Below are positions 1,491 through 42,232 of a stretch of 44,621 bases of DNA, one piece after another; the first letter of the stretch is position 1; every line of letters starts with the position of its first letter. Source of the stretch: Planctomyces sp. SH-PL62 (GTDB lineage: Bacteria; Planctomycetota; Planctomycetia; Planctomycetales; Planctomycetaceae); NCBI GenBank assembly GCA_945905295.1, contig CAMDPX010000034.1:1-44621 (forward strand), in the 5' to 3' direction. Made by a program: the position numbers and the translations under genes. Below the pieces are notes generated by a model. It did no database searches. It was not told where the DNA came from and saw only the letters and a program-made list of their open reading frames with translations.

Positions 1491-1544
1491 GAATGCCGCT
1501 CCTGAGTGCGGCGGAGTATATTGAGCCGCGAATCCGTCCCGCGA

Positions 1545-1625
1545 CCGTAGCCTGACTCTCCGAGTCGGGAGCGTTCGAATCGGAAGTCGTCCGAACTACT
1601 CCCGACTCGGAGAGTCAGGCTACGG
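1545..1625. repeat. GTAG twin-hairpin repeat (stem family CTGACTC)
   Basis: Perfect 27-base inverted arms at 1545-1571 and 1599-1625 with a 27-base spacer. The outer ends read CGTAG and CTACG, and each arm is itself a hairpin (CCTGACTC-TCC-GAGTCGGG). It sits in the divergent intergenic region between metX and the Gfo/Idh gene. The same stem family occurs at 20166-20228, at 8651-8816 and, in a related form, at 6984-7044. Confidence 0.9.
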
Positions 1626-1666
1626 CGGATGCAGAATCCTAATCCATCAACCTCGTGAGGTGCCCT

Positions 1667-2992
1667 ATGTCCCAGCCAACTCGACGTGACTTCCTGCAAA
1701 CGACCACTCTCGCTGCGGCCAGTGCGGCACTGCCGTACTGGTTCGCTCAGCAGCGGACGATGGCCGATGACGCCAAGTCACCGAACGAACGCCCAAAGGT
1801 TGGTTGCATCGGCAACGGTGGCATGGGGAGCGGCGATGCGGCGGCGATCAAGAACTACGGAGACATCGTCGCGCTGTGCGATGTGGACAGTAATCGGTCG
1901 GGAGTGCTCAACGACAAACTGCTCGGCGGCAAGGCGGAGTTTTTCGAGGACTATCGCAAGCTGCTCGACCGGAAAGACATCGACGTCGTCACGATCAGTA
2001 CGCCGGATCATTGGCACACTCGGATCGCGTTGGCCGCACTGCGAGCCGGCAAAGACGTCCATTGTCAGAAGCCGCTGACGCTGACCATCGACGAAGGGAA
2101 GCTGCTCTGCAAAGTCGTGAAGGAAACCGGCCGAGTCTTCCAAGTCGGCACGCAGCAACGCAGCGAACACAACTTTCAGAAGGCGGTCGCGCTGGCTCGC
2201 GAAGGCCGCATCGGAAAGATCAAGACGGTTCACGTCGCGATCGGTGGAGCACCCAAGGGTGGCCCGTTCAAGAAGCAAGCTCCGCCCGCGCATCTCAATT
2301 GGGATTCTTGGTTGGGACAGGCTCCGCTGGTCGAGTACATCCCGGAGCGCAGCCACAACAACTTCCGTTGGTGGTACGAGTACTCCGGCGGCAAGATGAC
2401 CGACTGGGGTGCTCACCACGTGGATATCGCTCAGTGGGCGATCGGCATGGAAGGCTCCGGCCCGACTTCGCTGGAAGTGCTGGAGAACGTCCACCCGGTC
2501 CCGTATGAGAAGGGTTGGCCGACGGTCGATGACTCCTACAACGCCGCCACGAACTTCAATGTCAAAGTGACGTACCCCAACGGTGTCGTCGTCTTCATCC
2601 GCGACGACTGCAAAGACCAAGGCTTCGACAACGGCGTGATGTTCGAGGGGGAAACCGGCCGCTTCTTCGTCAACCGCGGTAAGCTGACCGGTGCTCCGGT
2701 TGAGGAGCTCGAAAAGAATCCGATCTCGGAAGAGGTCTTCAAAGCTCTTCGCAAAGGGAAGAACCGCGACAACCACATGGGCAACTTCATCGCCTGCGTG
2801 AAGGACCGCGGCCAAACTCAAAGCGACGTCTTCAGCCACCACCGCATCCTGACGACGTGCCATCTGGCGAACATCGCGCTGCGCCTGAATCGCACGCTCA
2901 AATGGAACCCCGAAACCGAACAAATCCTCGGCGACGACGAAGCCAACGGCTGGCAGAAGCGAGAACAGCGCAAGGGGTATGAAGTCGCATAG
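1667..2992 (+). CDS. Tat-exported Gfo/Idh/MocA-family oxidoreductase
   Basis: A 441-residue NAD(P)-dependent oxidoreductase of the Gfo/Idh/MocA type. The start at ATG 1667 is preferred over GTG 1655 because GAGG lies just upstream and it places a twin-arginine signal (TRRDFLQ, residues 5-11, then an alanine-rich stretch) at the N terminus. The Rossmann motif GCIGNGGMGSG is at about residues 46-56, STPDHWH at 111-117, and the family lysine lies in QKP at 134-136. Export suggests a periplasmic sugar or polyol oxidation, as proposed for the many such paralogues in planctomycetes; the substrate is unknown. Confidence 0.9.
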   Translation: MSQPTRRDFLQTTTLAAASAALPYWFAQQRTMADDAKSPNERPKVGCIGNGGMGSGDAAAIKNYGDIVALCDVDSNRSGVLNDKLLGGKAEFFEDYRKLLDRKDIDVVTISTPDHWHTRIALAALRAGKDVHCQKPLTLTIDEGKLLCKVVKETGRVFQVGTQQRSEHNFQKAVALAREGRIGKIKTVHVAIGGAPKGGPFKKQAPPAHLNWDSWLGQAPLVEYIPERSHNNFRWWYEYSGGKMTDWGAHHVDIAQWAIGMEGSGPTSLEVLENVHPVPYEKGWPTVDDSYNAATNFNVKVTYPNGVVVFIRDDCKDQGFDNGVMFEGETGRFFVNRGKLTGAPVEELEKNPISEEVFKALRKGKNRDNHMGNFIACVKDRGQTQSDVFSHHRILTTCHLANIALRLNRTLKWNPETEQILGDDEANGWQKREQRKGYEVA

Positions 2993-3042
2993 TTCGATAA
3001 GAGCGAACCATCGACGATCACAAATGGTTGGCGGCTTACACG

Positions 3043-3306
3043 CTAAACCCGTCGGTATGCCCTGACGACATGCACGACCTTGACCAAGCGGTCGTCGGGG
3101 CTGACCGAGAAAACGAAGCCGAGCGGCGGTTCGAGCAGCAATCGAATCGGGCCGACTCGCGATTCACCCGCGTGTTCGGGGTCGATCTTCAGTTGCCGTT
3201 CAACCGCTTGCGAGACGCGCGTGACTTCGGCTTTGTCGTCGGCGGCGAGCCACAATTCCGCGAGTTCTCGTTCGGCCACCGGAGTCCAGATGACCGTGAA
3301 CTTCAT
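3043..3306 (-). CDS. ParE/RelE-like toxin of a type II TA pair
   Basis: An 87-residue protein beginning MKFTVIWTPVAERELAELW, the usual first strand and helix of ParE/RelE-fold toxins (xxxxWTxxAxxxLxxxW), and ending in a strand with the pattern VVHVVRAYRRV. It overlaps the upstream small gene at 3303-3536 by four bases (ATGA), the typical antitoxin-toxin coupling. These toxins act on gyrase or on ribosome-bound mRNA; the target is not predictable here. It is short and intact. The family call is moderate because it rests on pattern and arrangement. Confidence 0.7.
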   Translation of the reverse strand: MKFTVIWTPVAERELAELWLAADDKAEVTRVSQAVERQLKIDPEHAGESRVGPIRLLLEPPLGFVFSVSPDDRLVKVVHVVRAYRRV

Positions 3307-3536
3307 CGGGCGGACTCCAGGTCACGAAGGATGTGTTGCAACTCACGGCCTTCAGTGGACTCGGCTCGAAGAAGTAATTCGGCGTCGGAGACGAGTGGCT
3401 CGCACTCCCATTCCGAGTGCTGTTGCGACGGGGTGTAATAGCCCAACACGTCGCCAGACTCATCGACAAACTCCAGTCGATCACGCAGGTTGCCAAGCTG
3501 GCCGCGAATCTGTGGGTTGACCAATACACGAGTCAT
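3303..3536 (-). CDS. Putative antitoxin partner
   Basis: A 77-residue acidic small protein (MTRVLVNPQIRGQLGNLRDR...) directly upstream of, and overlapping by four bases, the ParE/RelE-like gene. I do not recognise a DNA-binding domain; the segment LVNPQIRGQLGNLRDRLEFVDESGDVLGYYTP resembles small planctomycete proteins that precede such toxins. The antitoxin role is inferred from position, size and charge. Confidence 0.6.
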   Translation of the reverse strand: MTRVLVNPQIRGQLGNLRDRLEFVDESGDVLGYYTPSQQHSEWECEPLVSDAELLLRAESTEGRELQHILRDLESAR

Positions 3537-3609
3537 GACGGAACCTCCGATTGAGATGGCAACATCGTAGTCCGGTCATCAGCCAACAGTAAGCGGATTC
3601 CGAAACCGC

Positions 3610-4500
<891 letters not shown>

Positions 4501-4557
4501 GTTTGGATGGAATTCTGGCTTTGAGGTTGAAGGAACGCCGCCAACGGCGACGGCGGA

Positions 4558-5259
4558 TTAGGGAAGTCGTAATTGATCGCCGGTTTGCTTGTAGGTCGCG
4601 CCCAAGTCCACTTGCAGGCACGGGCCACCCTTGAGGAACAAGGCCATTTGAGGAAGCGGTTGATCGAGCGCCAGCGGTTGATGCCAGACATCGAGCACTT
4701 GATGTTCATCACGTTCCGTTGGGTGGTAACTTGCGGCGTAGAGCCGAGCGGAGGGATGCGTCACATCGCTATCGAGCCGCTTCAAAAGTTCCGAGTGCAG
4801 GTTTGCGTAACGATCCGTGACGATGTCCACGATCATGACTCCGACCCCTTCGCGCAACATCGACTCACATTTCGCGATGAACGCATCCCGATGCTCGCGG
4901 CGGTCCTTGTTGGCCGGGCTGATCAGCTCGATCGCACCCGCGAGTACTGGGCCGGAAGAGCATTCGTAAACGGCCACTTGGACGATGTCGGTCGCGATGG
5001 GAAACTCCAACGTGAGCGTGGGCGGGGCAGGGGACCAATTAGTCACGGTTCCCGCTCCCGCTCCGTTTGCGACCGCCCCCTCGGAGTCATCCCACGTTGC
5101 GACGTCGATTTCGATGCCGAAGCTGGCTGTCGGTTCGGCAAACCAATCCTTTGGTAGTTGTTGATTGATGGCCGTCGCAATCATGCCAGCCCAAAGGGAA
5201 TGAAACGACTCCCAATGTCGGCGTCCTTTCAGCGGCGGATGAAAATGATCGCGAAGCAT
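4558..5259 (-). CDS. DUF4058-like protein
   Basis: A 233-residue protein that fits the DUF4058 family common in planctomycetes and cyanobacteria: an N-terminal block (HPPLKGRRHWESFHSLWAGM, then an INQQLP segment) and the family signature AIELISPANKDRREHRDAF followed by KCESMLREGVGVMIVDIV. That signature has the E..SP.NK...Y..K spacing of a possible nuclease-like core, but the family has no demonstrated function that I know. It lies 15 bases downstream of the gene at 5275-5676 and between sucC and sucD, so it may be co-transcribed with both. Confidence 0.7.
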   Translation of the reverse strand: MLRDHFHPPLKGRRHWESFHSLWAGMIATAINQQLPKDWFAEPTASFGIEIDVATWDDSEGAVANGAGAGTVTNWSPAPPTLTLEFPIATDIVQVAVYECSSGPVLAGAIELISPANKDRREHRDAFIAKCESMLREGVGVMIVDIVTDRYANLHSELLKRLDSDVTHPSARLYAASYHPTERDEHQVLDVWHQPLALDQPLPQMALFLKGGPCLQVDLGATYKQTGDQLRLP

Positions 5260-5274
5260 GATGTCGTTCCACCG

Positions 5275-5676
5275 TCAGGCGGCATGTCGGGACAAGGGAT
5301 ACTCTGAAAACTCTGCGATGTCGCGCGCGAAGCGAGTCAGATCGAGTGTCTCGCCTTCCGCGTCGAATCGGATGCCGTGTTGTTTCATTGTCAGTGAGCC
5401 AATCACGATTTCAAACGGGGTGCCGTCCACGTCTTTGCCAAGATTCTCGCTGACATAGGTGGCGACGCAAAATGAATGACCTGCCAGTTCGGGTTGGATG
5501 AGAGCGATCCTGTCGAACACGATCGGTTCACCGTTTCTGAGGAGGGTTCTTGGTTGGGACAGTGATTCAACGCAGCCGCCTTGAATCGTCGTTTCAAGAA
5601 CAAATGAGTTCCGAACACCATCGTCGAAACGCGTCCGGAATTCGTGGCCATCGAGTTTCAGGCGATGATTAACCAT
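5275..5676 (-). CDS. Small protein, possibly retropepsin-like fold
   Basis: A 133-residue protein, MVNHRLKLDGHEFRTRFDDG... The start is placed at ATG 5676 because the longer frame would read through the arm of the palindrome at 5692-5756. The C-terminal segment EIVIGSLTMKQHGIRFD resembles the second half of aspartyl-protease-like (clan AA) domains (ILGxxxLxxxGxxxD), but the catalytic D-T/S-G triad is not evident. Function is therefore not assigned. The gene is followed at 15 bases by the DUF4058 gene, suggesting a two-gene unit inserted in the sucCD interval. Confidence 0.6.
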   Translation of the reverse strand: MVNHRLKLDGHEFRTRFDDGVRNSFVLETTIQGGCVESLSQPRTLLRNGEPIVFDRIALIQPELAGHSFCVATYVSENLGKDVDGTPFEIVIGSLTMKQHGIRFDAEGETLDLTRFARDIAEFSEYPLSRHAA

Positions 5677-5691
5677 GCTGGTGAATCTGAT

Positions 5692-5756
5692 GTAGCCACG
5701 TTCGCCAGAACGTGGGGTCGTCGCAGGTTGGCCCACGTTCTGGCGAACGTGGCTAC
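5692..5756. repeat. GTAG twin-hairpin repeat (stem family CCACGTTC)
   Basis: Perfect 25-base inverted arms (5692-5716 and 5732-5756), ends GTAG and CTAC. Each arm is a hairpin CCACGTTC-GCCA-GAACGTGG. It follows the sucC stop codon on the minus strand and precedes the small gene at 5676. Its loop GCCA is shared with the element at 15549-15633. Confidence 0.9.
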
Positions 5757-5772
5757 GGTCTTAAGGCTACCT

Positions 5773-6960
<1,188 letters not shown>

Positions 6961-6983
6961 CGGTTGGCCTTTGTGGTCTGACT

Positions 6984-7044
6984 CGTAGCTCGACTTTCTG
7001 AGTCGAGTTTTTTCGGGCGGCTCGACTCGGAGAGTCAAGCTACG
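6984..7044. repeat. GTAG twin-hairpin repeat (stem variant CTCGACTT)
   Basis: Inverted 24-base arms at 6984-7007 and 7021-7044 with two mismatches, ends CGTAG and CTACG, 13-base spacer. The arm hairpin is CTCGACTT-TCT-GAGTCGAG, a variant of the CTGACTC family. It lies immediately upstream of the sucC start. Confidence 0.85.
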
Positions 7045-7149
7045 GGGTGTAAGGGGGCGGGATGATAACGGTGCTGTTTCGGGACCGTTAGCGATCAGCA
7101 ACGCGCGATTCTGCCGCGGCTTTGTTACTTTCTTGTCGAATTCCTGACC

Positions 7150-7171
7150 CCGCCGGGAATAAGCCCGGCGG
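7150..7171. repeat. Short hairpin upstream of the sigma factor gene
   Basis: Perfect 8-bp stem CCGCCGGG / CCCGGCGG with loop AATAAG, 25 bases before the sigma factor start at 7197. It could be a single-hairpin repeat or a leader structure; only one copy is in the window. Confidence 0.5.
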
Positions 7172-7196
7172 CAACGACTCTCCCTCTCGCGTCGCC

Positions 7197-7772
7197 ATGA
7201 ACTCCACTGAGCATCAGCAGCGTGTCGCCGATTTGATCGGACAGCATTACGAATTGCTGTACCGAGTGTCGTTCCGTTTGACCGGATCGGTGGCCGATGC
7301 GGAAGACCTGACTCAGCAGACGTTCCTGACGGCGCAGCAGAAACTGGAACAGCTTCGGCAAACAGAGAGCGCGAAGTCGTGGTTGCTGGCGATCCTGCGG
7401 CACCACTTCTTCCGAAATCGGAGCCGGGCGGCGAAGCAGTCGGTGCGGTTGGATTCGCTCCCCGAACCGATGAGTTCGACGCCCAAGTCGGACGGATTCG
7501 ATTCGGAAGAGCTGCAAGCCGCGCTCAACGATTTGGCCGAAGAGTTCCGAGTTCCGCTGGTTCTCTTCTACTTCCACGAACTGAGTTATCAAGACATCGC
7601 TGCCGAACTTTCGATCCCGCTGGGGACGGTGATGAGCCGCCTCTCGCGCGGCAAAGAACATCTTCGACGCCGTCTGTGCCAGGACGGGGTCGGGAGTCTT
7701 TTTCAGGTCGGACAAACGGCGACCGACAATCCATTGCCAAAACGTAAACAACAACGATCAACCCCGACCTGA
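7197..7772 (+). CDS. ECF-type RNA polymerase sigma-70 factor
   Basis: A 191-residue sigma factor with region 2 (residues 14-80; [13 protein letters not shown] at 34-46 is the core-binding and -10 recognition segment) and region 4 (about 105-160; [20 protein letters not shown] helix-turn-helix, -35 recognition). ATG 7197 is chosen because the upstream part of the frame crosses a hairpin repeat and lacks family similarity. The C-terminal 30 residues after LRRRL are basic and unconserved. It is followed 32 bases later by a zinc-binding anti-sigma-like membrane protein, the usual ECF arrangement. Confidence 0.9.
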
Positions 7773-7804
7773 AAAAAACTCCCGACCCCTTACCGCCAAC
7801 TGCC

Positions 7805-8638
7805 ATGACCCCTTCCCGCCCTGAACCGCTGACGTGTGAAACCGCTCTCGAACGGCTCGACGGCGTGTGGCTCGACCCATTGCCGGAAGAGCCGCTTGAT
7901 GCCGAGTTGATTGCCGCGCGCGAGCACTTGCAGGAATGCTCCGCCTGCTGGGCGAAGTGGGAACAACGTCGCGCCGCCGATCAGCGCATTTCCGAGGTCA
8001 TGCAAGCGGTCCCGGTGCCGTCAGGATTGCGCGAGCAACTGCTGGCTCAAACCGTGGCGGACGCTGCCAGCGTCCGGCCGACCGACGCAAGCTGCGTCGG
8101 CCACGATCGCAAGCTGCATCGCCGAGCGTGGTGGATCTCCGTCGCGGCGATGTTGCTGGTCAGCGCGGCGGGTGGTTCATGGCTGTGGCAGTCACTGCGA
8201 CCGCAGCGTGTTTCGATGCAGACGTTGTGCGACCTCACACCGTTGACCTCCGCAGGTCTCTCGAAAGTGGATGACCCTTCCAAGCTGCCGCCTCTGCCAG
8301 CGATGTGGTCCCGAGCGAAGGGGCTGCGACTGCCAGATCCACCACACTGGTTCATTCCGCCAAACTCGCGCGAAGCGACTGGATGGATCGCTTTCGAGTT
8401 GCGATCCGGTAAGACCACGATTCACGGCGTGCTGTTGATGACGCGACAGATCAACGTCAGCGATCCGCCGGCCGAATTGCTCGTGCGGCCGAGTTGGTCC
8501 AGCTACACGCAGCGCGGCGGCAAGCCGGTCAGCGTCGCCGGCTGGTCTGAACGCGGAGTCGTTTATCTCTGCTTCGTTCCGGGCGAACCGGCAGCGCTCG
8601 ACCGTCTCTTGCGAGCGACCGCGCCGACATCGGCGTGA
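7805..8638 (+). CDS. Anti-sigma factor, zinc-binding N-terminus, one TM segment
   Basis: A 277-residue membrane protein. Residues 41-48 are HLQECSAC (His-x3-Cys-x2-Cys), the zinc site of ZAS-type anti-sigma domains; Cys11 could be a further ligand. A hydrophobic segment at about 109-128 (WWISVAAMLLVSAAGGSWLW) is followed by an exported domain of about 150 residues. It should hold the ECF sigma factor encoded just upstream until a signal arrives. Oddity: at bases 8081-8099 a perfect hairpin (CCGACGCA-AGC-TGCGTCGG) lies in frame in the linker (residues about 93-99), possibly another repeat insertion. Confidence 0.82.
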   Translation: MTPSRPEPLTCETALERLDGVWLDPLPEEPLDAELIAAREHLQECSACWAKWEQRRAADQRISEVMQAVPVPSGLREQLLAQTVADAASVRPTDASCVGHDRKLHRRAWWISVAAMLLVSAAGGSWLWQSLRPQRVSMQTLCDLTPLTSAGLSKVDDPSKLPPLPAMWSRAKGLRLPDPPHWFIPPNSREATGWIAFELRSGKTTIHGVLLMTRQINVSDPPAELLVRPSWSSYTQRGGKPVSVAGWSERGVVYLCFVPGEPAALDRLLRATAPTSA

Positions 8639-8650
8639 GTTTTCGATCTG

Positions 8651-8816
8651 CGTCGCCTGACTCTCCGAGTCGGGACGGTTGCGGAGTGCTCCCGACTCGG
8701 AGAGGCCGTGAAGTTTTCGTGGAGCACGTTTTCTACGTGCTCGAAAATAGGCTGATTGGGCACGTTGAAAACGTGCCCCACGTCATTTATTCACAGCCTC
8801 GGAGAGTCAGGCGACG
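8651..8816. repeat. CTGACTC-family twin-hairpin repeat, interrupted
   Basis: The arms (8651-8675 and the split right arm 8690-8704 plus 8807-8816) belong to the same family as 1545-1625 and 20166-20228. The right arm is broken by a 93-bp insertion after CTCGGAGAG. Removing the insertion and one copy of that 9-mer restores an intact arm. The outer ends read CGTCG and CGACG rather than GTAG/CTAC, with the change on both sides. Confidence 0.85.
8705..8797. mobile_element. 93-bp mini-element with 9-bp target duplication
   Basis: The segment is flanked by two copies of CTCGGAGAG (8696-8704 and 8798-8806), consistent with a 9-bp target-site duplication. Its ends are short imperfect inverted repeats (GCCGTGAA / reverse of TTCACAGC). 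Inside are two larger inverted arms at 8719-8740 and 8760-8781 (20 of 22 match), each a hairpin around GCACGTTTT. It has no coding capacity, so it would be a non-autonomous, MITE-like element or a differently ended palindromic repeat. Confidence 0.75.
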
Positions 8817-8912
8817 GCTCCGAACGGCCGTTGACTCACCCTTCGCAAGTTCGGCGATTATGCTTCCGCCGGATTCACCTCTTCCGTTTCTCACATCACA
8901 AAGGACACAGCG

Positions 8913-10562
<1,650 letters not shown>

Positions 10563-10583
10563 CGATAGGTTGTTCAAAGCAAG

Positions 10584-10665
10584 AAGAGCCCGACGAATCA
10601 AAGGAGACGACGAATGCGAACTCCCACCAAAGCATTCGTCGTCTCCTTTCATTCGTCGGGCTCTT
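10584..10665. repeat. Long inverted repeat, GACGAAT family, copy 1
   Basis: Inverted arms of 34 bases (10584-10617 and 10632-10665, one mismatch) around a 14-base loop. The arm contains GCCCGACGAAT and GGAGACGACGAAT, i.e. an internal GACGAAT duplication. The second copy is at 24806-24879. Its place just after pgi would also allow it to act as a transcription terminator. Confidence 0.88.
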
Positions 10666-10699
10666 TCTGTCATATTCACTGACCAATCGGGAGACACCC

Positions 10700-11494
10700 A
10701 TGAAACTTCTCGGCCGCACCGCCCTCGTCACCGGAGCCGCTCGTGGCATCGGCCGGGGGTGTGCATTGGAGCTTGCGAAAGTGGGCGCGGATGTGGCGAT
10801 CAACGATCGTCAGCCCTCGGACAACACGGCATCGCTGATTGCCGAAATCGAATCGCTGGGCCGCCGCGCGGTACTCGTTGCCGGTGATGCGTTCGAGCGT
10901 GCTTCCTGTGAAGACATCGCGAACCGAGCGATCGCCGCGCTGGGACGCATTGACATTCTCGTCAGCAACCCGGCGTTCTCGCGTCGCGGCGACTTCCTTG
11001 ATTACGACCCGGAGCTTTTCGACAAGACTCTGCGAGGCACACTGACCGCCGGATTTCACATGAGCCAATTCGTCTCGCGGCACATGGTCGAGCGCGGTGG
11101 TGGCGGGAAGATCCTGTTCATTTCCAGCGTCCATTCGCGGCGACCGTACGCGCGAGCAGTCGCGTACAACGCGGCGAAGGCCGGCCTGAATCACATGGCC
11201 TTCACGATCGCCGCCGAATTGATTGGGCACCGCATCAACGTCAACGTCATCGAGCCCGGCTGGATCGACACTCCGGGCGAACACGAAACCTTCGGCGACG
11301 CAATGCTCGCCGAAGAGGGAGCCAAACTGCCGTGGGGCCGCATCGGCCAGCCATCCGACATCGGCCGCGCGGCAACGTTTTTGTGTTCGGACGACGCCGA
11401 CTACATCACCGGGATCTCGTTGGTTGTCGATGGTGGGTTTTGTCTCCGCGATTCGATCAGCAGTCCGTCGATGAAGCCCTCTCAAAGTGACTAA
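10700..11494 (+). CDS. SDR-family NAD(P)-dependent oxidoreductase
   Basis: A 264-residue classical short-chain dehydrogenase. TGAARGIGRG (11-20) is the cofactor motif, D36 in NDR suggests NAD preference, and the catalytic Ser142/143, Tyr156 and Lys160 lie in SSVHS and YNAAK. The substrate is not evident; neighbours (aminotransferase, symporter, aldolase, FAH hydrolase) suggest catabolism of a sugar acid or similar compound. The last codons and the stop overlap a low-complexity repeat (11483-11555), so the C-terminal SQSD may be repeat-derived. Confidence 0.92.
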   Translation: MKLLGRTALVTGAARGIGRGCALELAKVGADVAINDRQPSDNTASLIAEIESLGRRAVLVAGDAFERASCEDIANRAIAALGRIDILVSNPAFSRRGDFLDYDPELFDKTLRGTLTAGFHMSQFVSRHMVERGGGGKILFISSVHSRRPYARAVAYNAAKAGLNHMAFTIAAELIGHRINVNVIEPGWIDTPGEHETFGDAMLAEEGAKLPWGRIGQPSDIGRAATFLCSDDADYITGISLVVDGGFCLRDSISSPSMKPSQSD

Positions 11495-11555
11495 AGGGAC
11501 GAAAGCGACCAAAAGCCTTCACTCACTTTGGTCCCTTTTGTCCTTTTCGTCCTTG
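11483..11555. repeat. Low-complexity inverted repeat (GGGACGAAA/TTTCGTCC type)
   Basis: A purine-rich run (GACTAAAGGGACGAAAGCGA at 11488 onward) is followed by its imperfect reverse complement ending in TTTTCGTCC. It covers the SDR stop codon and the gap before the aminotransferase start at 11573. Confidence 0.7.
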
Positions 11556-11572
11556 AATCATCAGGTCATGTC

Positions 11573-12898
11573 ATGGTCACTACAAAATCCTACGACCTCT
11601 ATCGCCGAGCCCAGGAACTCATTCCCGGGGGAACACAGTTGCTCAGCCGGCGGCCGACGAAGTATGCCTACGGCGTCTCGCCCGTGTATGCCGCGCGAGC
11701 GAACGGCGCACGGATCTGGGACGTCGATGGGAACGAGTACATCGACTGGGTCAGCGGCATCGGCGCGATCATTCTGGGCTACTGCGATCCGGTGGTAGAT
11801 GACGCCGTGCGCGAGCAGATCGGCAAGGGAGTCGCGACGTCGATCAGCAGCGCGGTGGAACTCGAACTGGCCGAGGAATTGTGTCGCACGATTCCGTGCG
11901 CTGAGATGGTCCGCTATGCGAAGTGCGGCGGTGAGGCATGCGCGATTGCGGTGCGGATTGCTCGCGGAGCAACCGGACGGGACAAGGTGCTCTTCTGCGG
12001 CTATCACGGCTGGCATGATTGGTACTTGGCTGCGAATCTCGTGGCCGAAGAGAGCCTGAACTCGCACTTGTTTTCCGGCATCGAACCGATCGGTGTGCCC
12101 AAGGCGCTGGCCGGGACCGCTCTGCCATTTCCGTTTGGTGATCTCGCCGCGCTGGGGCAATTGCTCGATGACCACAAAGGAGAAGTCGCAGCGGTCATCA
12201 TGGAACCGCTTCGTTCGGAACGGCCTGCCGACGGATATCTCGCCGGCGTTCGCAAGCTGTGCGATGAGCGCGGCGCCGTGCTGATCTTCGACGAAGTCTC
12301 GTCCGGGTTTCGCTTCGGGATGCAGGCGGCTCAGGGCTTTGTCGGCGCGACGCCGGATATGGCAGTGTTCGCGAAGTCGATGTCGAACGGCTATCCGATG
12401 GGAGCGGTTGTCGGACGGCGCAGCGTCATGGAACCGGCCGCGAGGATGTTCATTTCCAGCACCTACTGGTCCGACCCAATTGGCATGGTTGCGTCGCTGA
12501 CGACGATCCGCGAACTGCGACGCCGCAACGTGTCCGAATCGTTGTGGTCGTTTGGACGTGAACTGCAATCGCGACTGAATTCTGTCGCGGGAGAAGTGGG
12601 TCTCGACGTGCATTGCGGCGGCTTGGCCGTGCATCCGCATCTGGAGTTCGTGACCGCCTCCGCCGATCTCAAGCCGGTCTTGGCGACGTTGTTCATTCAG
12701 GAAATGGCCAAACGCGGCTGCCACGGTTATGCGAGCTTCTACCTCAACGCGGCTCAGGGAGCGGCGGAGTTGGAACAGACGGCGGCTGCGGCTCGTGAGG
12801 TTTTCACGATCATTCGCCAGGCGATCGACAGCGGCGACGCGGAGTCGTTTCTCGAATGTCCCCGCCAGCAAGATGCGTTTCGGAGATTGGTGCGATAG
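11573..12898 (+). CDS. Class III aminotransferase (GSA-aminomutase-like)
   Basis: A 441-residue PLP enzyme of the class III aminotransferase/glutamate-1-semialdehyde aminomutase group. ATG 11573 starts at MVTTKSYDLYRRAQELIPGG, the usual N-terminal helix; the frame upstream is repeat. The PLP-ring aspartate is in LIFDEVSSGFR and the Schiff-base lysine is Lys268 in FAKSMSNGYP. HemL itself would normally have different flanking residues and lie elsewhere, so a catabolic amine or amino-sugar substrate is more likely. It follows the SDR gene by 78 bases. Confidence 0.88.
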   Translation: MVTTKSYDLYRRAQELIPGGTQLLSRRPTKYAYGVSPVYAARANGARIWDVDGNEYIDWVSGIGAIILGYCDPVVDDAVREQIGKGVATSISSAVELELAEELCRTIPCAEMVRYAKCGGEACAIAVRIARGATGRDKVLFCGYHGWHDWYLAANLVAEESLNSHLFSGIEPIGVPKALAGTALPFPFGDLAALGQLLDDHKGEVAAVIMEPLRSERPADGYLAGVRKLCDERGAVLIFDEVSSGFRFGMQAAQGFVGATPDMAVFAKSMSNGYPMGAVVGRRSVMEPAARMFISSTYWSDPIGMVASLTTIRELRRRNVSESLWSFGRELQSRLNSVAGEVGLDVHCGGLAVHPHLEFVTASADLKPVLATLFIQEMAKRGCHGYASFYLNAAQGAAELEQTAAAAREVFTIIRQAIDSGDAESFLECPRQQDAFRRLVR

Positions 12899-36579: not shown

Positions 36580-37659
36580 ATGACTGCCACATCGCCTTTG
36601 ATTCTGTTGCTCGCGGATGCGTTCTCGCTGCGCGGAACGAGCGCTTACACGCTGCGACTGGCCGAGCAATTGCCGCAGCACGATTTCCGAACGCGGATCG
36701 TTTGCCCGTGCGCGCGAATGGTGAAACTTGACCGCCGCGACGAATTGCCCATCCAAGAATATCCGCATCTGCTCACGCCGCTGTGGGGGCAGTTGGTGCG
36801 GCGCTGGATGCTCACGGATGTTTGCGAAGACCCGCCCGCGCTGATTCACATTCAGTCGCGGCGGGTGCTGCCGCTGGGAACCTGGCTGGCGAAGCGCCTG
36901 GGCTGCTCGTTCGTGTTGACCGTGCATGACTTCTTGCAGCCTCGCGAATGCTTGCCGTTCTCGGCGACTTGGGGCCGCCGCATCATCACCGTCAGCGACG
37001 CGGTGCAGGCGGAACTGTTGCAACGCACGAAGCTCCGTCCGGATTTGATCTCTGTCATTCCCAGCGGAGTGGATGTTCCTTTCGAACCGCCGCGACCAGT
37101 GCTGGAACCGAATCGCACGCCGGTGATCGGCACCGCCGGACCGCTCGAAGCGGTCAAAGGCTTTCCGTATTTCTTGGGAGCCGCGCAGCGCGTCGCCGCA
37201 GCCGGCAACCCCGCCGAGTTTCTCGTTGCCGGAGCCGGTCCGGAAGAAGCCAACCTGCGCCGGCTCGCCCGCGAACTGCAAATCGCCGATCGAGTCACCT
37301 TCGTTCCCAACGTGCTCGATTTAACTTCGTCGCTGGCCGCGATGGACATTTTCTGTCTGCCCTCGCTGCGACAAGGACTCGGCACGCTGATGCTGGAAGC
37401 GATGTCGCTCGGCCGCCCCGTGATCGCCAGCGATGTCGATGGTGTGGATTCCGTCGTCCACGACAACGAAACCGGATTGCTGGTGCCGCCGTCGAACAGC
37501 GAAGCCCTCGCGCAACGAATGCTCGAACTGCTCCGTGACCCGTTCCGAGCACGCCGGCTCGCGGATGCCGCGCGAGAAAATGTACGCCGCGATTTCAGCG
37601 TCGCCCGCATGGCTCAACAAACCGTCGACGTTTATCGCAGCGTGCTCGGCCAGCCCTGA
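36580..37659 (+). CDS. GT4-family glycosyltransferase
   Basis: A 359-residue GT-B enzyme. The N-terminal half has LLLADAFSLRGTSAYTLRLA and FVLTVHDFLQP; the C-terminal nucleotide-sugar domain has VIGTAGPLEAVKGFPYFLGA, FLVAGAGPEEANL and DIFCLPSLRQGLGTLMLEAM, with the E-x7-E-type motif modified to include Glu in LMLEAMSLGRPVI. It transfers a sugar to a lipid, protein or polysaccharide acceptor. It has no partner genes here that would reveal which glycan it builds. Confidence 0.9.
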   Translation: MTATSPLILLLADAFSLRGTSAYTLRLAEQLPQHDFRTRIVCPCARMVKLDRRDELPIQEYPHLLTPLWGQLVRRWMLTDVCEDPPALIHIQSRRVLPLGTWLAKRLGCSFVLTVHDFLQPRECLPFSATWGRRIITVSDAVQAELLQRTKLRPDLISVIPSGVDVPFEPPRPVLEPNRTPVIGTAGPLEAVKGFPYFLGAAQRVAAAGNPAEFLVAGAGPEEANLRRLARELQIADRVTFVPNVLDLTSSLAAMDIFCLPSLRQGLGTLMLEAMSLGRPVIASDVDGVDSVVHDNETGLLVPPSNSEALAQRMLELLRDPFRARRLADAARENVRRDFSVARMAQQTVDVYRSVLGQP

Positions 37660-38235
37660 GGTGTGGCAGCTCGATGTCCGGAAACGAAAAATCTCTCGAT
37701 CTCGTGCGGCATGAGTTCGAGAGTCGAAGTCGGTCAGACTTTCCAGGCTGCCTCGTCGCGCGGACAGCCCGAATCGAAGCGTTCGGGTCGGGCTGGAACG
37801 CCTGGCCGACGCTCAAATCCTGTTGATGAACCGCTCCGCCAAGCCCTTCTCGCCCAGGACGATGTTGAGCTTGCCGGTCGAGGCAATCCTTTGCAGGACT
37901 TTCAGCTCACGCCGCCTCATCCTCGGAAGCAGACTCCGCCCACGTCAGGAAGGCGTGCAGCATCTTCAAAGTGATTTCGGTCGATCGAGCCATCGTGAAT
38001 TGCCTCGATCCTCTCAATGCCATCGTTGAACAATCACCGAAATGCGATTTCTCGGCGTGATGACATGACTCGCGAGTTGGCTCTCGCTGTCGTCGAGAAC
38101 AGGTCATAAAAGTCGCGTGCGAAGCCGGACAACTCGACGGCGTATCCTGAACACATCGCATTGGCATGAACTCATGGGCGACCGGTGATAGGCTGATGCA
38201 AATTCCAAATCTCAAATCTCGAAAGGGGCAACAAC
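37660..38235. other. 576-base region without a confident gene
   Basis: It contains a decayed copy of the CAGxCTTTCCAG-type repeat at about 37733-37800. On the minus strand, two short overlapping frames look protein-like: 37907-37993 (28 residues, MARSTEITLKMLHAFLTWAE...) and 37813-37920 (35 residues, LKVLQRIASTGKLNIVLGEK...), in different frames and joined across a possible frameshift. They may be remnants of one gene. I do not recognise it. Confidence 0.4.
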
Positions 38236-38700
38236 ATGCCGTTTCCAAAGGTCGAAGTTTCTGCGGTGGCGATCGTGCGTGGCGGTCGCATCTTGGCGGT
38301 TTACAACTCGGCCTGGGGAGCGTTCACGCTGCCGATGACGAAACGCCGCGTGTGGCAAAACAAGGAGATCGAAACCGTGCATCGGGACGAATCCTGGGAA
38401 CTCGCCGCCTCGCGAGCCATCGCCGAGATCATCGGCAAGACCGTCGTGGGGTTGAAGCCGCTCGTCAGCCTACCGGGCTATCAGCAAAGCGATCGAGATA
38501 GTGCGATCAAAGAGTACGACTACCAGGCATTCCGATTTGTCCTGCCCGATGGCATTGAGCCGATCGCCGGTCTCGTCACCGAATGGCTGACGATTGAGGA
38601 ATGGCTCGACCCACTCCGAGCGCCGATTTCTCCGACGGCGGTGGACCTCCTCAAACACGCCGAAGCGGAGGCGAAGCTGGCCGGTCGTTCGTTCCCGTAG
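38236..38700 (+). CDS. Nudix-like protein with degenerate Nudix box
   Basis: A 154-residue Nudix-fold protein preceded by AGGGG. The first strands (VEVSAVAIVRGGRILAVYNS) and the helix DESWELAASRAIAEIIG align with the Nudix box, but the RExxEE core reads Arg60-Ala-Ile-Ala-Glu64-Ile, so two of the metal-binding glutamates are missing. It is probably catalytically dead or altered, perhaps a binding protein. It directly precedes an intact Nudix gene, with a GTAG repeat in between whose TAG is this gene's stop. Confidence 0.72.
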   Translation: MPFPKVEVSAVAIVRGGRILAVYNSAWGAFTLPMTKRRVWQNKEIETVHRDESWELAASRAIAEIIGKTVVGLKPLVSLPGYQQSDRDSAIKEYDYQAFRFVLPDGIEPIAGLVTEWLTIEEWLDPLRAPISPTAVDLLKHAEAEAKLAGRSFP

Positions 38701-38785
38701 GTCAGGCTTTCCAGCCTGACTTCATTTGCCTCACTCCGGCTCGCGGCTACGAATCAAACTGGTCAGCCTGGAAAGGCTGACCTAC
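38697..38785. repeat. GTAG twin-hairpin repeat (stem family GTCAGGCT)
   Basis: Inverted 24-base arms at 38697-38720 and 38762-38785 with one mismatch; ends GTAG and CTAC. Arm hairpin GTCAGGCT-TTCC-AGCCTGAC. The first TAG is the stop of the upstream Nudix-like gene, and the element ends 11 bases before the next start. Confidence 0.9.
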
Positions 38786-38796
38786 GAAAAACCATT

Positions 38797-39327
38797 ATGC
38801 GTGAATCGTTGGCCGGTTTGGCTTGGATTGAGCGGCGTGTTGGCGATGAGTCGCAATGGCTCGTGCTGTGGAACGAGAGATGGCAGCAATACGCGCTGGT
38901 CGGAGGACATCTCGAAGCGGACGAGTCGTTACGCGAGTGTGTGCTGCGCGAGGTCGAGGAAGAACTTCGGCTGACTCGCGGCCAGGACTTCCAGGTCAGC
39001 GAGCAAGCATTGGTGCAACTCGACTACGAGGCGTTTTCCGAATCCGTGCAGGAGCAGACTCGGTATCGGCACGTAGTCTTCTCGTTGACTTTGACGACGG
39101 ACGCACAGGACCGAATCGAATCGCAACCGGGAGTTCGCTGGGTGACCGATGGCGAGATCGAACGCCGAGCCACAACGGACGGACTGCCCATCGCCGAGCA
39201 GGTGGAGCGGGCGTGGCGTGAGATCCAGAAGCTGTCCCTCAGCGCGCAGCCATTGATGCGTCGTCCACTGGATGAGTTTGACTTCTTCGTCTCGTATGCC
39301 ATCGACGAGCAGTCCTACGGTGCCTGA
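38797..39327 (+). CDS. Nudix hydrolase with a TIR-like C-terminal stub
   Basis: A 176-residue protein with a nearly complete Nudix box, Gly37-x5-Glu43-x7-Arg51-Glu52-Val-Glu54-Glu55-Glu56, which binds metal and cleaves X-linked nucleoside diphosphates. Beyond the Nudix fold (about residue 145) the chain ends with PLDEFDFFVSYAIDEQSYGA. FDFFVSYA is very like the first strand of a TIR domain (xDxFISYxxxD), after which a stop codon follows at once. A full TIR needs over 100 more residues, which are not found in any frame downstream. The gene is preceded by a repeat and lacks an obvious ribosome site. Confidence 0.82.
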   Translation: MRESLAGLAWIERRVGDESQWLVLWNERWQQYALVGGHLEADESLRECVLREVEEELRLTRGQDFQVSEQALVQLDYEAFSESVQEQTRYRHVVFSLTLTTDAQDRIESQPGVRWVTDGEIERRATTDGLPIAEQVERAWREIQKLSLSAQPLMRRPLDEFDFFVSYAIDEQSYGA

Positions 39328-39393
39328 CCCCTGCCTCTGGAATTGTTGTTATGCACCCATGACTGGCAACGCTCGATACGAAAGACAAGGAAA

Positions 39394-39411
39394 GCGGGAA
39401 TCAATTCCCGC
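39394..39411. repeat. Short hairpin between the Nudix and kinase genes
   Basis: Perfect 8-bp stem GCGGGAAT / ATTCCCGC with a 2-base loop, in the 127-base gap before the kinase-like gene. Possibly a repeat remnant or an attenuator. Confidence 0.5.
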
Positions 39412-39454
39412 ACTCCAAAGCTTCAGCAACTCGAAGTCATCAGGAATTCAAACC

Positions 39455-42232
39455 ATGACCACGCCGTTGACCATCGACACGGTCCATTGGGAAAGTCGAG
39501 CACAAGGGAAGATCCCGCAGGAGGAGACTCGGCAGCGGCTCTCGGCTGAGTTGGTCGCGGTGTTTGCACCGGACGGCATCGAGCGGGTGACGGTGCATGA
39601 TGTGTTTGTCGGGTTCAAGAGAGATCCGTTGACGAAAGTCATCTTGGGGATCGAGACGTTTCGCGGCGGTGAGTTTCAATCGCACATCATCAAGTTGGGA
39701 GTCGAGTCGGAGGTCGGGCGCGATTTCGATGGATGGCAAGAGTGTGTGGCTCGACGCAACGTGCGCAGCCGGTTGTTCGTGCCGGTGACGAAACGCTCGC
39801 TGCCTGAGCGAGAGAGCGAACGGCCGGGGCTGCCGCCGATTCCTCGGTGGGCTGTTCTCTACGAGAACGCTTACCTGTTGTTCGGCTTCGACTCGGAGCA
39901 TCAAGTCCCTGTGACGTGGCACTCGGCGGCGGAAAAGGGGATCAAAACGGAGGACCCGAAATCTCACGATGTCGCGGACATGGCGTCGGTCGAACGGATC
40001 GTCGTCGACATGTTCAGCGACCTGCACGAGTGGTTCTACAAGTCGGCGAAGCATGATCCGCAGCGAGCGGTCGAGTTCTACACGTCGAAGTTTCAAAAAG
40101 TGGAGGACCGCTGGAGGGCTGATCCGGCGCTCCCCAACAGCGACCCGCGCTGTGACCGCGCGGTCTTGCGAGCGGATGCGCTCTGGCTCCTCTCTGGCCG
40201 AGATGCTCCGCAAAAGCCGGACGCGCCAAAATATCTTGACCCGCTCGATTACATCGCCTGGGCTTTGCACCATGCGGCTCGTGACGAGGCCGTCGCGCGC
40301 GACATCCCGTTCGTCCCGTCCACGCTCGTCGGGCCGACGCATGGAGACTTGCATGGTCAGAACATTCTGGTCGGAGTCTATCGTCACGAAGCCCGCTCAC
40401 CGATCTTGTACGACTATGGCGAGATGGCTCGGGACAACGTCGTGGCGTGGGATTTCGTCAAACTCGAAATGGAATTGAAGTCGCGGTTGCTGCCGTGGAT
40501 TCTGGACAACGACCGCGAAACACGCGAAGCATTCTTGGCACGGCCTCGGAGTGCCCGGCGCGTGGAGTCGCCCGATACAACTCAGGCGGAACTGGATCGC
40601 TCGCAACGTACACAGCGGTTGGCCTGGCTGTACGAAATCGAACGGCTGCTGGCAAAGGAATCGCACCAGATCGACAGCGTCGACAAGGCGGACTGCCGTG
40701 AGCCTCCCAGTCGCCGCGACCTGATCCCCGGTCAGGCAGCGCTGAGCCGGTTGCTCACGCTGCTGCTGCGGATTCGCCAGGAGGCCGCGTTCGTGCTGGG
40801 TTCGCGACAACCGGGAGCGTTCGGCGGCTGGCGCGACGAATACAACTTCGCCCTCGCCGTGTATGGCCTGACGACCGCGAAATGGAACTCGTACGAAAAG
40901 GCGGAAACGCAATCGGCGCTGGTGTCGGCGGGAGTGGCCTGTGCCGAACTGACGGCCGCTCGGATGTCGCATGAGCCGTCCGCCATCGCGGCCAATCCGA
41001 CGTCCGCGATGGCGGCCAGCTATCGCATCCCGCTGTACCTGGCTCACCAGGCTTGGGGCCGTAACGACCATGCTTCCGCACTGGTGATTCTCGCTGCGGC
41101 CGAACAGCAATTCTCGCGCTGCGTGCCGCTCAAGGCCGAGACCGCATTGAATCTTGCCGCGACCGGCGACGTGAAACAGGCGCTGGCGTCCGTCGCGCCA
41201 TTTCGGTCGCTCTGCCCCGACTTCGGAGACCATGAAACGCTCACACGCATCGGCCGCTGCCTGAAGGAAAGGGCCGACCGAAGCTGGCAGGAGTGGAATG
41301 CCAATCACATCACTCCCGATCACGAAGTGCTGCGGCAGCTCTACGAGGCGGCTTACAACGCCTATCGGGAAGCGTATGAGATCCATCAGCATTACTTCCC
41401 CGGCATCAACGCGGCAACGATGGCGCTGCTGTCGCGCCAACCCACCGCCGTCGTCGAGAAACTGATCAAGTCCGTGAAGCAACACTGCCAAAAAGCGGAT
41501 ACCTCCCACGAGGATTGCTACTGGGTCTTCGCCACCGAAGCTGAAGTGGCGTTGATCGGTGGCGACTATGGCCTCGCCGCCAGCAGATACTTGGCGGCGT
41601 TCACCGAGCTGACTCCGCAAACGATCCAGCACGCTCAGAGTTCATGGAGACAGGTTTGCCGAGTGGGGCACTTCCTCGGCCAGGGACTCACGCCAATCGT
41701 GGAGGTCTTCCTGTCCGTCGCGATCGTGCGTCAGAACCTGGACATCGGCCCCTTCAACTTTTGCAGCGAACGCTTCCCGAATCGCACGCTGCTGAACGAA
41801 GTCAACCGCGCCGGCACTTGGTTCGAGGCTAAGAAGACTCAGCCGGTCTGGGCCAAACGATTGTCAGCCGCTCAGTCGGTGAGCACGCTGGAAGGAATCC
41901 TCGAAGCCAACGCCGGCGACTACCTCTGCCGCGGCCCCGCCGGTGAACTGTGGCCTCAAACCGTGAAGAATCTCGAATCAAAATACGAACCGACCGGCCA
42001 CATCGAAGCCGACGGCTGGCAACAGTTCACTCCGCGACCCGATGGTGCCAGTGTGAAAGCGGCCCAGATCAATCACGACTTCACCGTTCATGCCACCTGG
42101 GGTGAACTTCGTGGGAAGTCCGGTGACTACCTCGTCAAAAACGCCGCCGATCAAGACGTGCCCTATCCCGATAATGTTTGGATCGTCTCGCAGTCTCTCT
42201 TCCAAGCGACTTACGAAATGACGAATCGTTGA
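39455..42232 (+). CDS. APH-like kinase, TPR sensor-like and GDYL-repeat protein
   Basis: A 925-residue cytosolic-looking protein. ATG 39455 has AGGA 9 bases upstream. Residues about 1-420 carry an aminoglycoside-phosphotransferase/choline-kinase-like core: His296-Gly-Asp298-Leu-His-x2-Asn303 (THGDLHGQNILV) and Asp320-Tyr-Gly (ILYDYGEMA), i.e. catalytic and metal-binding motifs at proper spacing. From about 560 to 790 come TPR-like helices with HYFPGINAATMALL and YWVFATEAEVALIGGDYGLA, matching the DUF4071/TPR-S pattern. The end has two related modules, AGDYLCRGPAGELWP (near 820) and SGDYLVKNAADQDVPYP (near 889). No membrane segment. With the Nudix pair it resembles a conflict/signalling module; function is inferred. 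Confidence 0.8.
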   Translation: MTTPLTIDTVHWESRAQGKIPQEETRQRLSAELVAVFAPDGIERVTVHDVFVGFKRDPLTKVILGIETFRGGEFQSHIIKLGVESEVGRDFDGWQECVARRNVRSRLFVPVTKRSLPERESERPGLPPIPRWAVLYENAYLLFGFDSEHQVPVTWHSAAEKGIKTEDPKSHDVADMASVERIVVDMFSDLHEWFYKSAKHDPQRAVEFYTSKFQKVEDRWRADPALPNSDPRCDRAVLRADALWLLSGRDAPQKPDAPKYLDPLDYIAWALHHAARDEAVARDIPFVPSTLVGPTHGDLHGQNILVGVYRHEARSPILYDYGEMARDNVVAWDFVKLEMELKSRLLPWILDNDRETREAFLARPRSARRVESPDTTQAELDRSQRTQRLAWLYEIERLLAKESHQIDSVDKADCREPPSRRDLIPGQAALSRLLTLLLRIRQEAAFVLGSRQPGAFGGWRDEYNFALAVYGLTTAKWNSYEKAETQSALVSAGVACAELTAARMSHEPSAIAANPTSAMAASYRIPLYLAHQAWGRNDHASALVILAAAEQQFSRCVPLKAETALNLAATGDVKQALASVAPFRSLCPDFGDHETLTRIGRCLKERADRSWQEWNANHITPDHEVLRQLYEAAYNAYREAYEIHQHYFPGINAATMALLSRQPTAVVEKLIKSVKQHCQKADTSHEDCYWVFATEAEVALIGGDYGLAASRYLAAFTELTPQTIQHAQSSWRQVCRVGHFLGQGLTPIVEVFLSVAIVRQNLDIGPFNFCSERFPNRTLLNEVNRAGTWFEAKKTQPVWAKRLSAAQSVSTLEGILEANAGDYLCRGPAGELWPQTVKNLESKYEPTGHIEADGWQQFTPRPDGASVKAAQINHDFTVHATWGELRGKSGDYLVKNAADQDVPYPDNVWIVSQSLFQATYEMTNR

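What the first reader, a model, noticed from the sequence alone, without database searches (positions are those of the whole stretch)
38236..42232. Candidate NAD-signal conflict locus: Nudix pair plus kinase/TPR-S-like protein
A degenerate Nudix protein, an active-looking Nudix protein with a TIR-like tail, and a 925-residue protein combining an APH-like kinase core (HGDLHxxN, DYG), TPR-S/DUF4071-like repeats and two GDYL modules lie in one direction. TPR-S scaffolds have been predicted to sense NAD-derived signals in prokaryotic immune systems, TIR domains make such signals, and Nudix enzymes degrade ADP-ribose-type compounds. The combination therefore hints at a signal producer/eraser/sensor system. 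I know of no described system with exactly this composition, though I cannot search for one.
Basis: partly seen in the sequence, partly recalled or inferred. Interest (0 to 1): 0.78.

Follow-up and report, generated by a model that had tools for sequence, protein, structure and literature searches.

The report
Disarmed bacterial conflict gene cluster
The window carries the surviving core (a dead Nudix, a live-looking Nudix and a kinase-sensor protein) of a recurring planctomycete gene cluster of probable immune type, whose TIR-bearing part, still whole in a close relative, has been deleted here.

Summary
The three genes exist and most domain guesses hold. The 925-residue protein matches Pfam TCAD9 and TPR-S; its two GDYL motifs lie in one PGDYG-like domain. 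P0002 is an active-type Nudix, P0001 a Nudix-like pseudoenzyme. The 'TIR-like tail' is not a TIR: it is a deletion scar joining the first codons of a TIR domain to a stray TPR-repeat fragment. A congener (L007, 92% identical) has the fuller locus: LysR, TIR-STAND-TPR, PFK, Nudix1, a Nudix2-TIR-STAND-TPR fusion, and the kinase/TPR-S protein. Short relics of the missing parts remain in the window in the same order. The core recurs: of 17 TCAD9-TPR-S loci, 11 have a Nudix1 or Nudix2 gene nearby (6 have both), 10 a LysR gene, 9 a TIR, STAND or cyclase gene. Nudix1 lacks two catalytic glutamates in 9 of 9 aligned members; Nudix2 keeps REUxEE in 16 of 17. The window copy sits where two congeners have an SPFH gene and more tRNAs, and is less diverged than its flanks, so it probably moved horizontally. 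Best reading: core of an NAD/ADP-ribose-type conflict system with exchangeable effectors, disarmed here. Chemistry is inferred. New variant of a known kind.

The parts
38236..38700 (+). Nudix1: Nudix-like pseudoenzyme, 154 aa (LPMTK motif; RAIAEI in place of REUxEE)
   Evidence: ORF; no Pfam hit; two catalytic glutamates missing in 9 of 9 aligned members; dN/dS 0.29 against L007
38797..39327 (+). Nudix2: active-type Nudix domain (about residues 1-150) plus the stub of a former fusion partner
   Evidence: PF00293 5.6e-10; Nudix box with all catalytic glutamates; dN/dS 0.23 (residues 1-160) against L007
39272..39327 (+). Deletion scar: first TIR codons (identity with L007 to 39300) joined to a TPR-repeat fragment (39298-39320), then a stop
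   Evidence: blastn and k-mer comparison with L007
39455..42232 (+). TCAD9 (APH-like kinase) - TPR-S - PGDYG-like protein, 925 aa
   Evidence: PF19974 and PF20308; dN/dS 0.28 against L007
40307..40795 (+). Pfam TCAD9 match (residues 285-447) with HGDLHxxN and DYG; the conserved N-lobe Lys80 lies upstream of it
41078..41422 (+). Pfam TPR-S match (residues 542-656)
41786..42229 (+). PGDYG-like C-terminal domain with both GDYL motifs
   Evidence: PF14083 sub-threshold; stand-alone relative L113 over the cut-off
37911..37968 (-). Relic of the LysR regulator gene (codons near its start)
   Evidence: 95-96% identical to L007 932-989; LysR profile 3e-5
38033..38131 (+). Relic of the L007 stretch between TIR-STAND-TPR and the PFK-like gene (L007 4111-4208)
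   Evidence: 84% identical
38120..38235 (+). Relic of the 3' end of the PFK-like gene and the leader of Nudix1 (L007 from 5478)
37822..37920 (-). Relic of the SPFH/Band 7 gene that stands here in congeners (33 residues near its C-terminus)
   Evidence: tblastn 85% identical; the full gene in L132 is PF01145 Band_7

Best explanation
The locus is the core of a recurring planctomycete conflict (probably anti-phage) operon that has lost its effector and regulator. The full form has a divergent LysR regulator, a pseudo-Nudix (Nudix1), an active-type Nudix (Nudix2), an APH-like kinase joined to a TPR-S scaffold, and a variable effector. Proposed working in intact relatives. Shown by sequence: the parts, their order, and which catalytic residues are kept. 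Inferred: all the chemistry. (1) The STAND-TPR part senses an invader and activates the TIR, which cleaves NAD+ to ADP-ribose-type products. (2) Nudix2 hydrolyses stray ADP-ribose-type signal and so sets the firing threshold. (3) Nudix1, which should not hydrolyse it, binds the same ligand as a sensor. (4) The TPR-S region binds a nucleotide or scaffolds the complex, and the attached kinase phosphorylates a small molecule or a partner to commit the response. In this genome the TIR-STAND part is deleted, so the remaining three proteins are a disarmed module, kept for some residual role or decaying.
For: Domains. Fuller relative with matching relics in the window. The TIR/STAND DNA of the L007 fusion has no copy elsewhere in the assembly apart from TPR repeats of another gene and a dispersed repeat; the other L007 TIR-STAND protein has only matches of up to 43% identity. 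Recurrence: of 17 TCAD9-TPR-S loci, 11 have a Nudix1 or Nudix2 gene, 6 have both, 10 a LysR gene (the window's is a relic), 5 a TIR gene, 9 a TIR, STAND or cyclase gene. Order Nudix1-Nudix2-TCAD9-TPR-S kept in G201, outside the class. At genome level 8 genomes hold both the kinase protein (14 of 397) and a close Nudix2 (13 of 397) against 0.46 expected, P 2.5e-10; without the window genome and G010, P 7.9e-8; with all 35 Nudix-positive genomes, P 3.4e-6; none corrected for ancestry. HGDLHxxN and [FY]D[YF] are kept in all 16 aligned kinase sequences that reach them. Nudix1 dead in 9 of 9, Nudix2 REUxEE intact in 16 of 17. Movement: different site in G010, site without the locus in G010 and G002, locus dS 0.15-0.22 against 0.29-0.43 for four flanking genes.
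Against: No experiment. PADLOC has no hit for the kinase proteins P0003 and P0004. Only 6 of 17 loci clearly have both Nudix genes, which weakens the eraser-plus-reader pairing as a fixed rule; L008 has Nudix2 only and L101 Nudix1 only. Six of 17 show no Nudix gene: L089, L097 and L100 with 8.7, 4.8 and 8.0 kb upstream examined, L099 with 2.6 kb, and L088 and L096 cut by the contig end on that side. TIR genes are near only 5 of 17. Substrates of the Nudix proteins are unknown. The structure prediction failed (mean pLDDT 38.8). G201 shows no LysR in the 1.3 kb left on its contig. The locus was not found in plasmids or viral contigs. dN/dS covers the whole time since divergence from L007 and does not show that the core is still used after the deletions.
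Confidence: 0.45

Rival explanations
1. The Nudix domains are ligand sensors, not erasers: Nudix1 and Nudix2 bind an ADP-ribose-type nucleotide and gate the fused effector, as NUDT9-H does in TRPM2 (recalled) and Nudix does in NrtR regulators (stated in a passage of PMC9503650).
For: Nudix1 lacks two catalytic glutamates in 9 of 9 aligned members. Nudix2 is fused N-terminally to TIR-STAND, to a DUF4062/NTPase protein and to the kinase, a usual place for a sensing domain.
Against: Nudix2 keeps REUxEE in 16 of 17 aligned members, which a pure sensor need not do.
Confidence: 0.25
2. The operon is not defence: a LysR-controlled nucleotide or metabolite regulation module (kinase plus Nudix proteins) beside which TIR/STAND genes came to lie in some lineages.
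For: LysR regulators and a PFK-like gene (L007) are metabolic themes, and an APH-type kinase may act on small molecules. L100 has LysR and the kinase protein without a Nudix or effector match nearby.
Against: Sporadic presence, differing effector genes, and movement between sites.
Confidence: 0.15
3. The window locus is only decaying debris: three ORFs not yet broken, with no function left (this can hold together with the best explanation for the intact relatives).
For: LysR, PFK, both TIR-STAND genes and the fusion partner are lost at several separate breakpoints; the final glycine of the Nudix2 box is Arg here and Gly in L007, though other members also vary there.
Against: All three remaining ORFs are intact, with dN/dS 0.23-0.29 against L007.
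Confidence: 0.4
4. The apparent deletions are assembly artefacts of a fragmented genome assembly.
For: The assembly has 476 contigs and TPR repeats can collapse; four tRNA genes expected here had no close copy elsewhere in it.
Against: Several junctions with short relics in order; both flanks belong to one site in G002 and G010; the TIR/STAND DNA of the fusion is not elsewhere in the assembly.
Confidence: 0.07

Closest known systems
TPR-S (PF20308) nucleotide-centred conflict systems (Burroughs et al. 2015; recalled, paper not held)
   Same: TPR-S domain above Pfam cut-off; related loci carry TIR, STAND-type and cyclase genes
   Different: Here TPR-S is joined to a TCAD9 kinase and recurs with Nudix genes and a LysR gene; the listings showed no description of that core
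TCAD9 of vWA-MoxR-VMAP ternary systems (PMC10910872, one legend seen; PMC7159879, passages seen, main text without the word TCAD)
   Same: C-lobe matches PF19974 above cut-off
   Different: No VMAP, MoxR or vWA gene among the proteins scanned; the five loci with the best PF19974 matches (L115-L119) gave no hit to the P0003-based kinase profile, so this looks like a divergent branch
Thoeris (TIR plus nucleotide-sensing effector)
   Same: TIR-derived signal logic proposed; the TIR of L091 passes Pfam ThsB_TIR, and P0009 and P0013 hit PADLOC ThsB models through their TIR
   Different: No ThsA hit among the proteins scanned against PADLOC; Nudix and kinase parts are not Thoeris parts (recalled)
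TIR-STAND (bacterial NLR-like) effectors
   Same: P0008 and P0009 of L007 have TIR, NB-ARC/NACHT-like and TPR matches; NB-ARC passes the cut-off in P0009 but not in P0008
   Different: P0008 has an in-frame N-terminal Nudix domain, as have L107, L108 and L109
NrtR-type Nudix regulators (PMC9503650, passages seen)
   Same: Degenerate Nudix domain plus a transcription regulator nearby
   Different: The regulator is a separate LysR protein, not a fused HTH

Membership tests
TPR-S protein | Match to PF20308 above gathering score | tested here: met
   37.4 bits against 27.6
TCAD9 | Match to PF19974 above gathering score | tested here: met
   48.5 bits against 40, C-lobe only (profile 293-403 of 429)
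vWA-MoxR-VMAP ternary system | Adjacent vWA, MoxR and VMAP genes | tested here: inconclusive
   none among the Pfam-scanned neighbours, but not every neighbouring ORF was scanned
Active Nudix hydrolase (P0002) | GX5EX7REUXEEXGU box | tested here: met
   catalytic glutamates present; the final G is R in the window and G in L007; activity not tested
Active Nudix hydrolase (P0001) | REUXEE glutamates | tested here: not met
   two of three replaced
TIR protein (P0002 tail) | TIR domain | tested here: not met
   no TIR hit; deletion scar
PGDYG protein (P0003 C-terminus) | Match to PF14083 above gathering score | tested here: inconclusive
   16.6 bits against 27; its relative L113 passes with 28.4
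Thoeris | ThsA plus ThsB | tested here: not met
   no ThsA or ThsB hit for the three window proteins in PADLOC
Anti-phage defence system | Protection on phage challenge | not testable with these tools
   none

The most novel reading that the evidence does not exclude
A distinct immune system type in which a catalytically dead Nudix reads, and a live Nudix fused to a TIR-STAND receptor erases, a NAD-derived signal, while an APH-like kinase on a TPR-S scaffold makes the commit decision by phosphorylating the signal or a partner; effectors are swapped around this core, and some genomes keep the core after losing the effector.
Probability: 0.3. Interest if true: 0.78.

Novelty: new variant of a known kind. 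Interest (0 to 1): 0.56.

Why it matters
If the reading holds, the Nudix2-TIR fusion puts a signal maker and a candidate signal remover in one polypeptide, and the paired dead Nudix is a candidate reader of the same signal. That would make the predicted role of TPR-S as a nucleotide sensor (recalled), and of an APH-like kinase acting on small molecules in conflict systems, testable with purified proteins. The window also offers a natural effector-deleted version to compare with the fuller operon in L007.

Tried and rejected
Structure prediction of P0003 with its two usable homologues gave mean pLDDT 38.8; no fold search was made on it. Sequence search of solved structures for P0003 found nothing at E up to 10. 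PADLOC: no hit for P0003 or P0004; the PDC-S07 hit on P0002 covers residues 34-64 only; P0008 and P0009 hit candidate PDC-S66 and, for P0009, several TIR-bearing models; none was taken as proof of defence. Plasmids: no match. Phages: two records of haloarchaeal virus SH1, PGDYG region only. Viral contigs: none. PF19974 over 392 genomes of the phylum: 62 with a match at E up to 1e-5, 15 over the cut-off; the five best places (L115-L119) gave no match to the P0003-based profiles, and this wider set was not used for neighbourhood counts. Considered and rejected: a frameshifted but present TIR; Nudix association by chance; two separate GDYL modules.

Rows dropped before counts. From the TCAD9-TPR-S set: G660 and G272, which are TPR-S-cyclase proteins without the kinase; G026, PGDYG region only; and L090, the same contig as L008. 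The 17 loci are window, L007, L008, L088, L089, L091-L101 and L182. From the Nudix alignment: L098 (cut by its contig end) and two proteins with weak extra Nudix1-type matches, L112 8115-9086 (its box keeps the EE pair) and the N-terminal part of L094; Pfam sees one NUDIX domain in each of these two. If L094 is counted, 7 of 17 loci have both Nudix types. From the kinase alignment: a second, shorter ORF of L101. 'Both' counts window, L007, L091, L092, L095 and L182. The Nudix cut at E below 1e-17 (13 genomes) was set after seeing a gap in the list. each drew 397 genomes of the class; I take them to be the same draw. In G531, one of the 8 shared genomes, the two genes are on different contigs. 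'Nearby' means within the fetched stretch (3 to 23 kb), limited by contig ends in several. The codon comparisons leave out gapped codons and stops. PFK and LysR of L007 were not searched for elsewhere in the window's genome. In G003 and G005 the SPFH gene and tRNAs lie on one contig and the glycosyltransferase on another; the G006 stretch has the tRNAs but no SPFH match.

Full report
1. What is there. Three intact ORFs lie on the + strand: P0001 (38236-38700), P0002 (38797-39327) and P0003 (39455-42232, 925 aa). Pfam finds NUDIX in P0002 (5.6e-10), TCAD9 (9.5e-13) and TPR-S (3.9e-9) in P0003, and a sub-threshold PGDYG match at its C-terminus. TCAD9 is described as associated with vWA-MoxR-VMAP systems (PMC10910872, one legend seen). 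That it is an APH-like kinase rests on the HGDLHxxN and DYG motifs (family meaning recalled) and on sub-threshold APH matches in two homologues, P0004 (1.3e-4) and the L182 protein (4.5e-4). P0001 has no Pfam match, nor have its relatives P0017 and L182 7084-7530.

2. The TIR tail is a scar. L007, a contig of a congener (G010; 'Planctomyces sp.' in its record title), encodes a P0003 relative of 92% identity and, upstream, a fuller locus: LysR (10-1014, minus), TIR-STAND-TPR (1213-4074), a phosphofructokinase-like gene (4241-5527), Nudix1 (5594-6058) and a 1165-residue Nudix2-TIR-STAND-TPR fusion (6164-9661) before the kinase/TPR-S gene (10001-12775). The window aligns to this locus only in pieces: 37911-37968 to the LysR start, 38033-38131 to the stretch after TIR-STAND-TPR, 38120-38703 to the PFK end and Nudix1, 38761-39300 to the Nudix part of the fusion, and 39393-42232 to the last gene. 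At the joint the window follows L007 to the start of the TIR and then matches the TPR repeats near 9119, 9245 and 9379, sharing GCC, after which a stop follows. The rest of the fusion's DNA (L007 6815-9944) has no match elsewhere in the 8.6 Mb assembly (97.2% complete) except TPR repeats of a gene on C68 and a dispersed repeat. The other TIR-STAND protein (P0009) has 9 matches, the best at 43% identity. PFK and LysR were not searched for.

3. The site. In G002 and G010 the glycosyltransferase gene is followed by an SPFH/Band 7 gene and a tRNA cluster; in G003 and G005 the SPFH gene and tRNAs are together and the glycosyltransferase is on another contig; the G006 stretch has the tRNAs without an SPFH match. 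In the window 33 residues of the SPFH protein can be recognised, then the locus, then the tRNA cluster without Arg-gcg, Lys-ttt, Arg-tcg and Thr-cgt, all four of which stand there in G002, G005, G006 and G010. G010 has this site without the locus on contig C16 and carries the locus on C9. dS between window and G010 is 0.15 (P0003), 0.21 (P0001) and 0.22 (P0002, residues 1-160) against 0.37, 0.38, 0.43 and 0.29 for four flanking genes. Different place and lower divergence point to horizontal movement.

4. The recurring core. A profile of five TCAD9-TPR-S proteins finds 15 of 397 genomes in the class (includes the window's genome and G660, a cyclase protein), 3 of 392 drawn from the phylum (the window's genome, G201, and G272, a cyclase protein) and 1 of 9 in the class of G201, G201 itself. 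By protein search 4 of 59 close genomes match, counting the window's own and G026, where only the PGDYG region matches. After dropping such hits and one duplicate contig, 17 loci remain. Of these, 11 have a Nudix1 or Nudix2 gene in the stretch examined and 6 clearly both; 10 have a LysR gene (the window's is a relic), 5 a TIR gene, 3 a TPR-S-cyclase gene, and 9 any of TIR, STAND or cyclase. Effectors differ: TIR-STAND-TPR (L007), TIR-STAND (L101), TIR with WD40 repeats (L091), SLOG-like-TIR (L088, SLOG part sub-threshold), DUF4062 with an NTPase domain (L089, L095), cyclase (L008, L092, L093). Nudix2 is fused to TIR-STAND in L007, L107, L108 and L109, to a DUF4062/NTPase/TPR protein in L095, and to the kinase in L092 and L093. 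L105 and L109 have LysR, Nudix1 and Nudix2 with TIR but no kinase gene on the contig stretch. G201, outside the class, keeps Nudix1-Nudix2-TCAD9-TPR-S in the window's order. Against the reading: L088, L089, L096, L097, L099 and L100 show no Nudix gene, two of them (L088, L096) being cut by the contig end on the upstream side. At genome level 8 genomes share both families against 0.46 expected (P 2.5e-10; P 7.9e-8 without the window genome and G010; P 3.4e-6 using all 35 Nudix-positive genomes); ancestry is not corrected.

5. Catalytic residues. Nudix1 replaces two of the three REUxEE glutamates in 9 of 9 aligned sequences and carries LPM[TS]K where Nudix2 has the GGH turn. Nudix2 keeps REUxEE in 16 of 17; the exception has Lys. 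Rows left out are told under Tried and rejected. All 16 aligned kinase sequences that reach the region keep HGDLHxxN and [FY]D[YF]; the N-lobe Lys is kept in all 17. The L007 fusion's TIR has a WCRTEW stretch, where TIR NADases carry their glutamate (the role is recalled).

6. Reading. The parts and their order are shown; the chemistry is inferred. I take the intact operon to be a conflict system in which a TIR-STAND or other effector makes or executes a nucleotide signal, Nudix2 removes stray signal, Nudix1 reads it, and the kinase/TPR-S protein relays or commits. PMC9503650 (passages seen) describes Nudix domains as hydrolases of NDP-X molecules and, in NrtR, as ADPr sensors, which supports both the eraser and the sensor reading. 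[quoted passage not shown] The window copy lacks the effector and regulator and is best called a disarmed core; dN/dS of 0.23-0.29 against L007 shows past constraint only.

7. Novelty. TPR-S, TCAD9, TIR-STAND and Nudix are known conflict-system parts (the passages above; the 2015 TPR-S paper is recalled, not held). Paper searches listed no title or abstract start that describes this core; two searches listed 25 of 63 and 12 of 26 papers, one search found none, and I read passages of three papers only. I rate it a new variant of a known kind.

Noticed in passing
L113 16751-17209; AY950802.1 2176-2421: The PGDYG-like domain of P0003 also stands alone in G026 (over the Pfam cut-off), after a 481-residue ORF without a Pfam match, and part of it matches ORF 8/9 of haloarchaeal virus SH1.
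   Followed up: partly
L002 1321-3339 (G000:C63): The window's own genome has a second TPR-S protein, with a cyclase domain, divergent from a gene with a DUF4062 domain.
   Followed up: partly
window, tRNA cluster from 42460: Four tRNA genes present at this site in four congeners (Thr-cgt, Arg-tcg, Lys-ttt, Arg-gcg) are missing here, and a DNA search found no close copy elsewhere in the assembly.
   Followed up: partly
G000:C68:12886-13597: A gene elsewhere in the genome has TPR repeats 89% identical in DNA to those of the L007 Nudix2-TIR-STAND gene.
   Followed up: no
L007 about 9727-9944: A dispersed repeat of about 200 bases, matching on both strands, lies between the fusion gene and the kinase gene in L007 and has more than ten places in the window's genome.
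   Followed up: no
window 38696-38786: A 25-base inverted repeat (92% complementary) sits between Nudix1 and Nudix2; a related arm lies at 37729-37750.
   Followed up: no
window 36580-37659: The glycosyltransferase gene beside the locus also matches Pfam GT4-conflict (3.2e-10), though less well than general glycosyltransferase families, and it is present in congeners without the locus.
   Followed up: no
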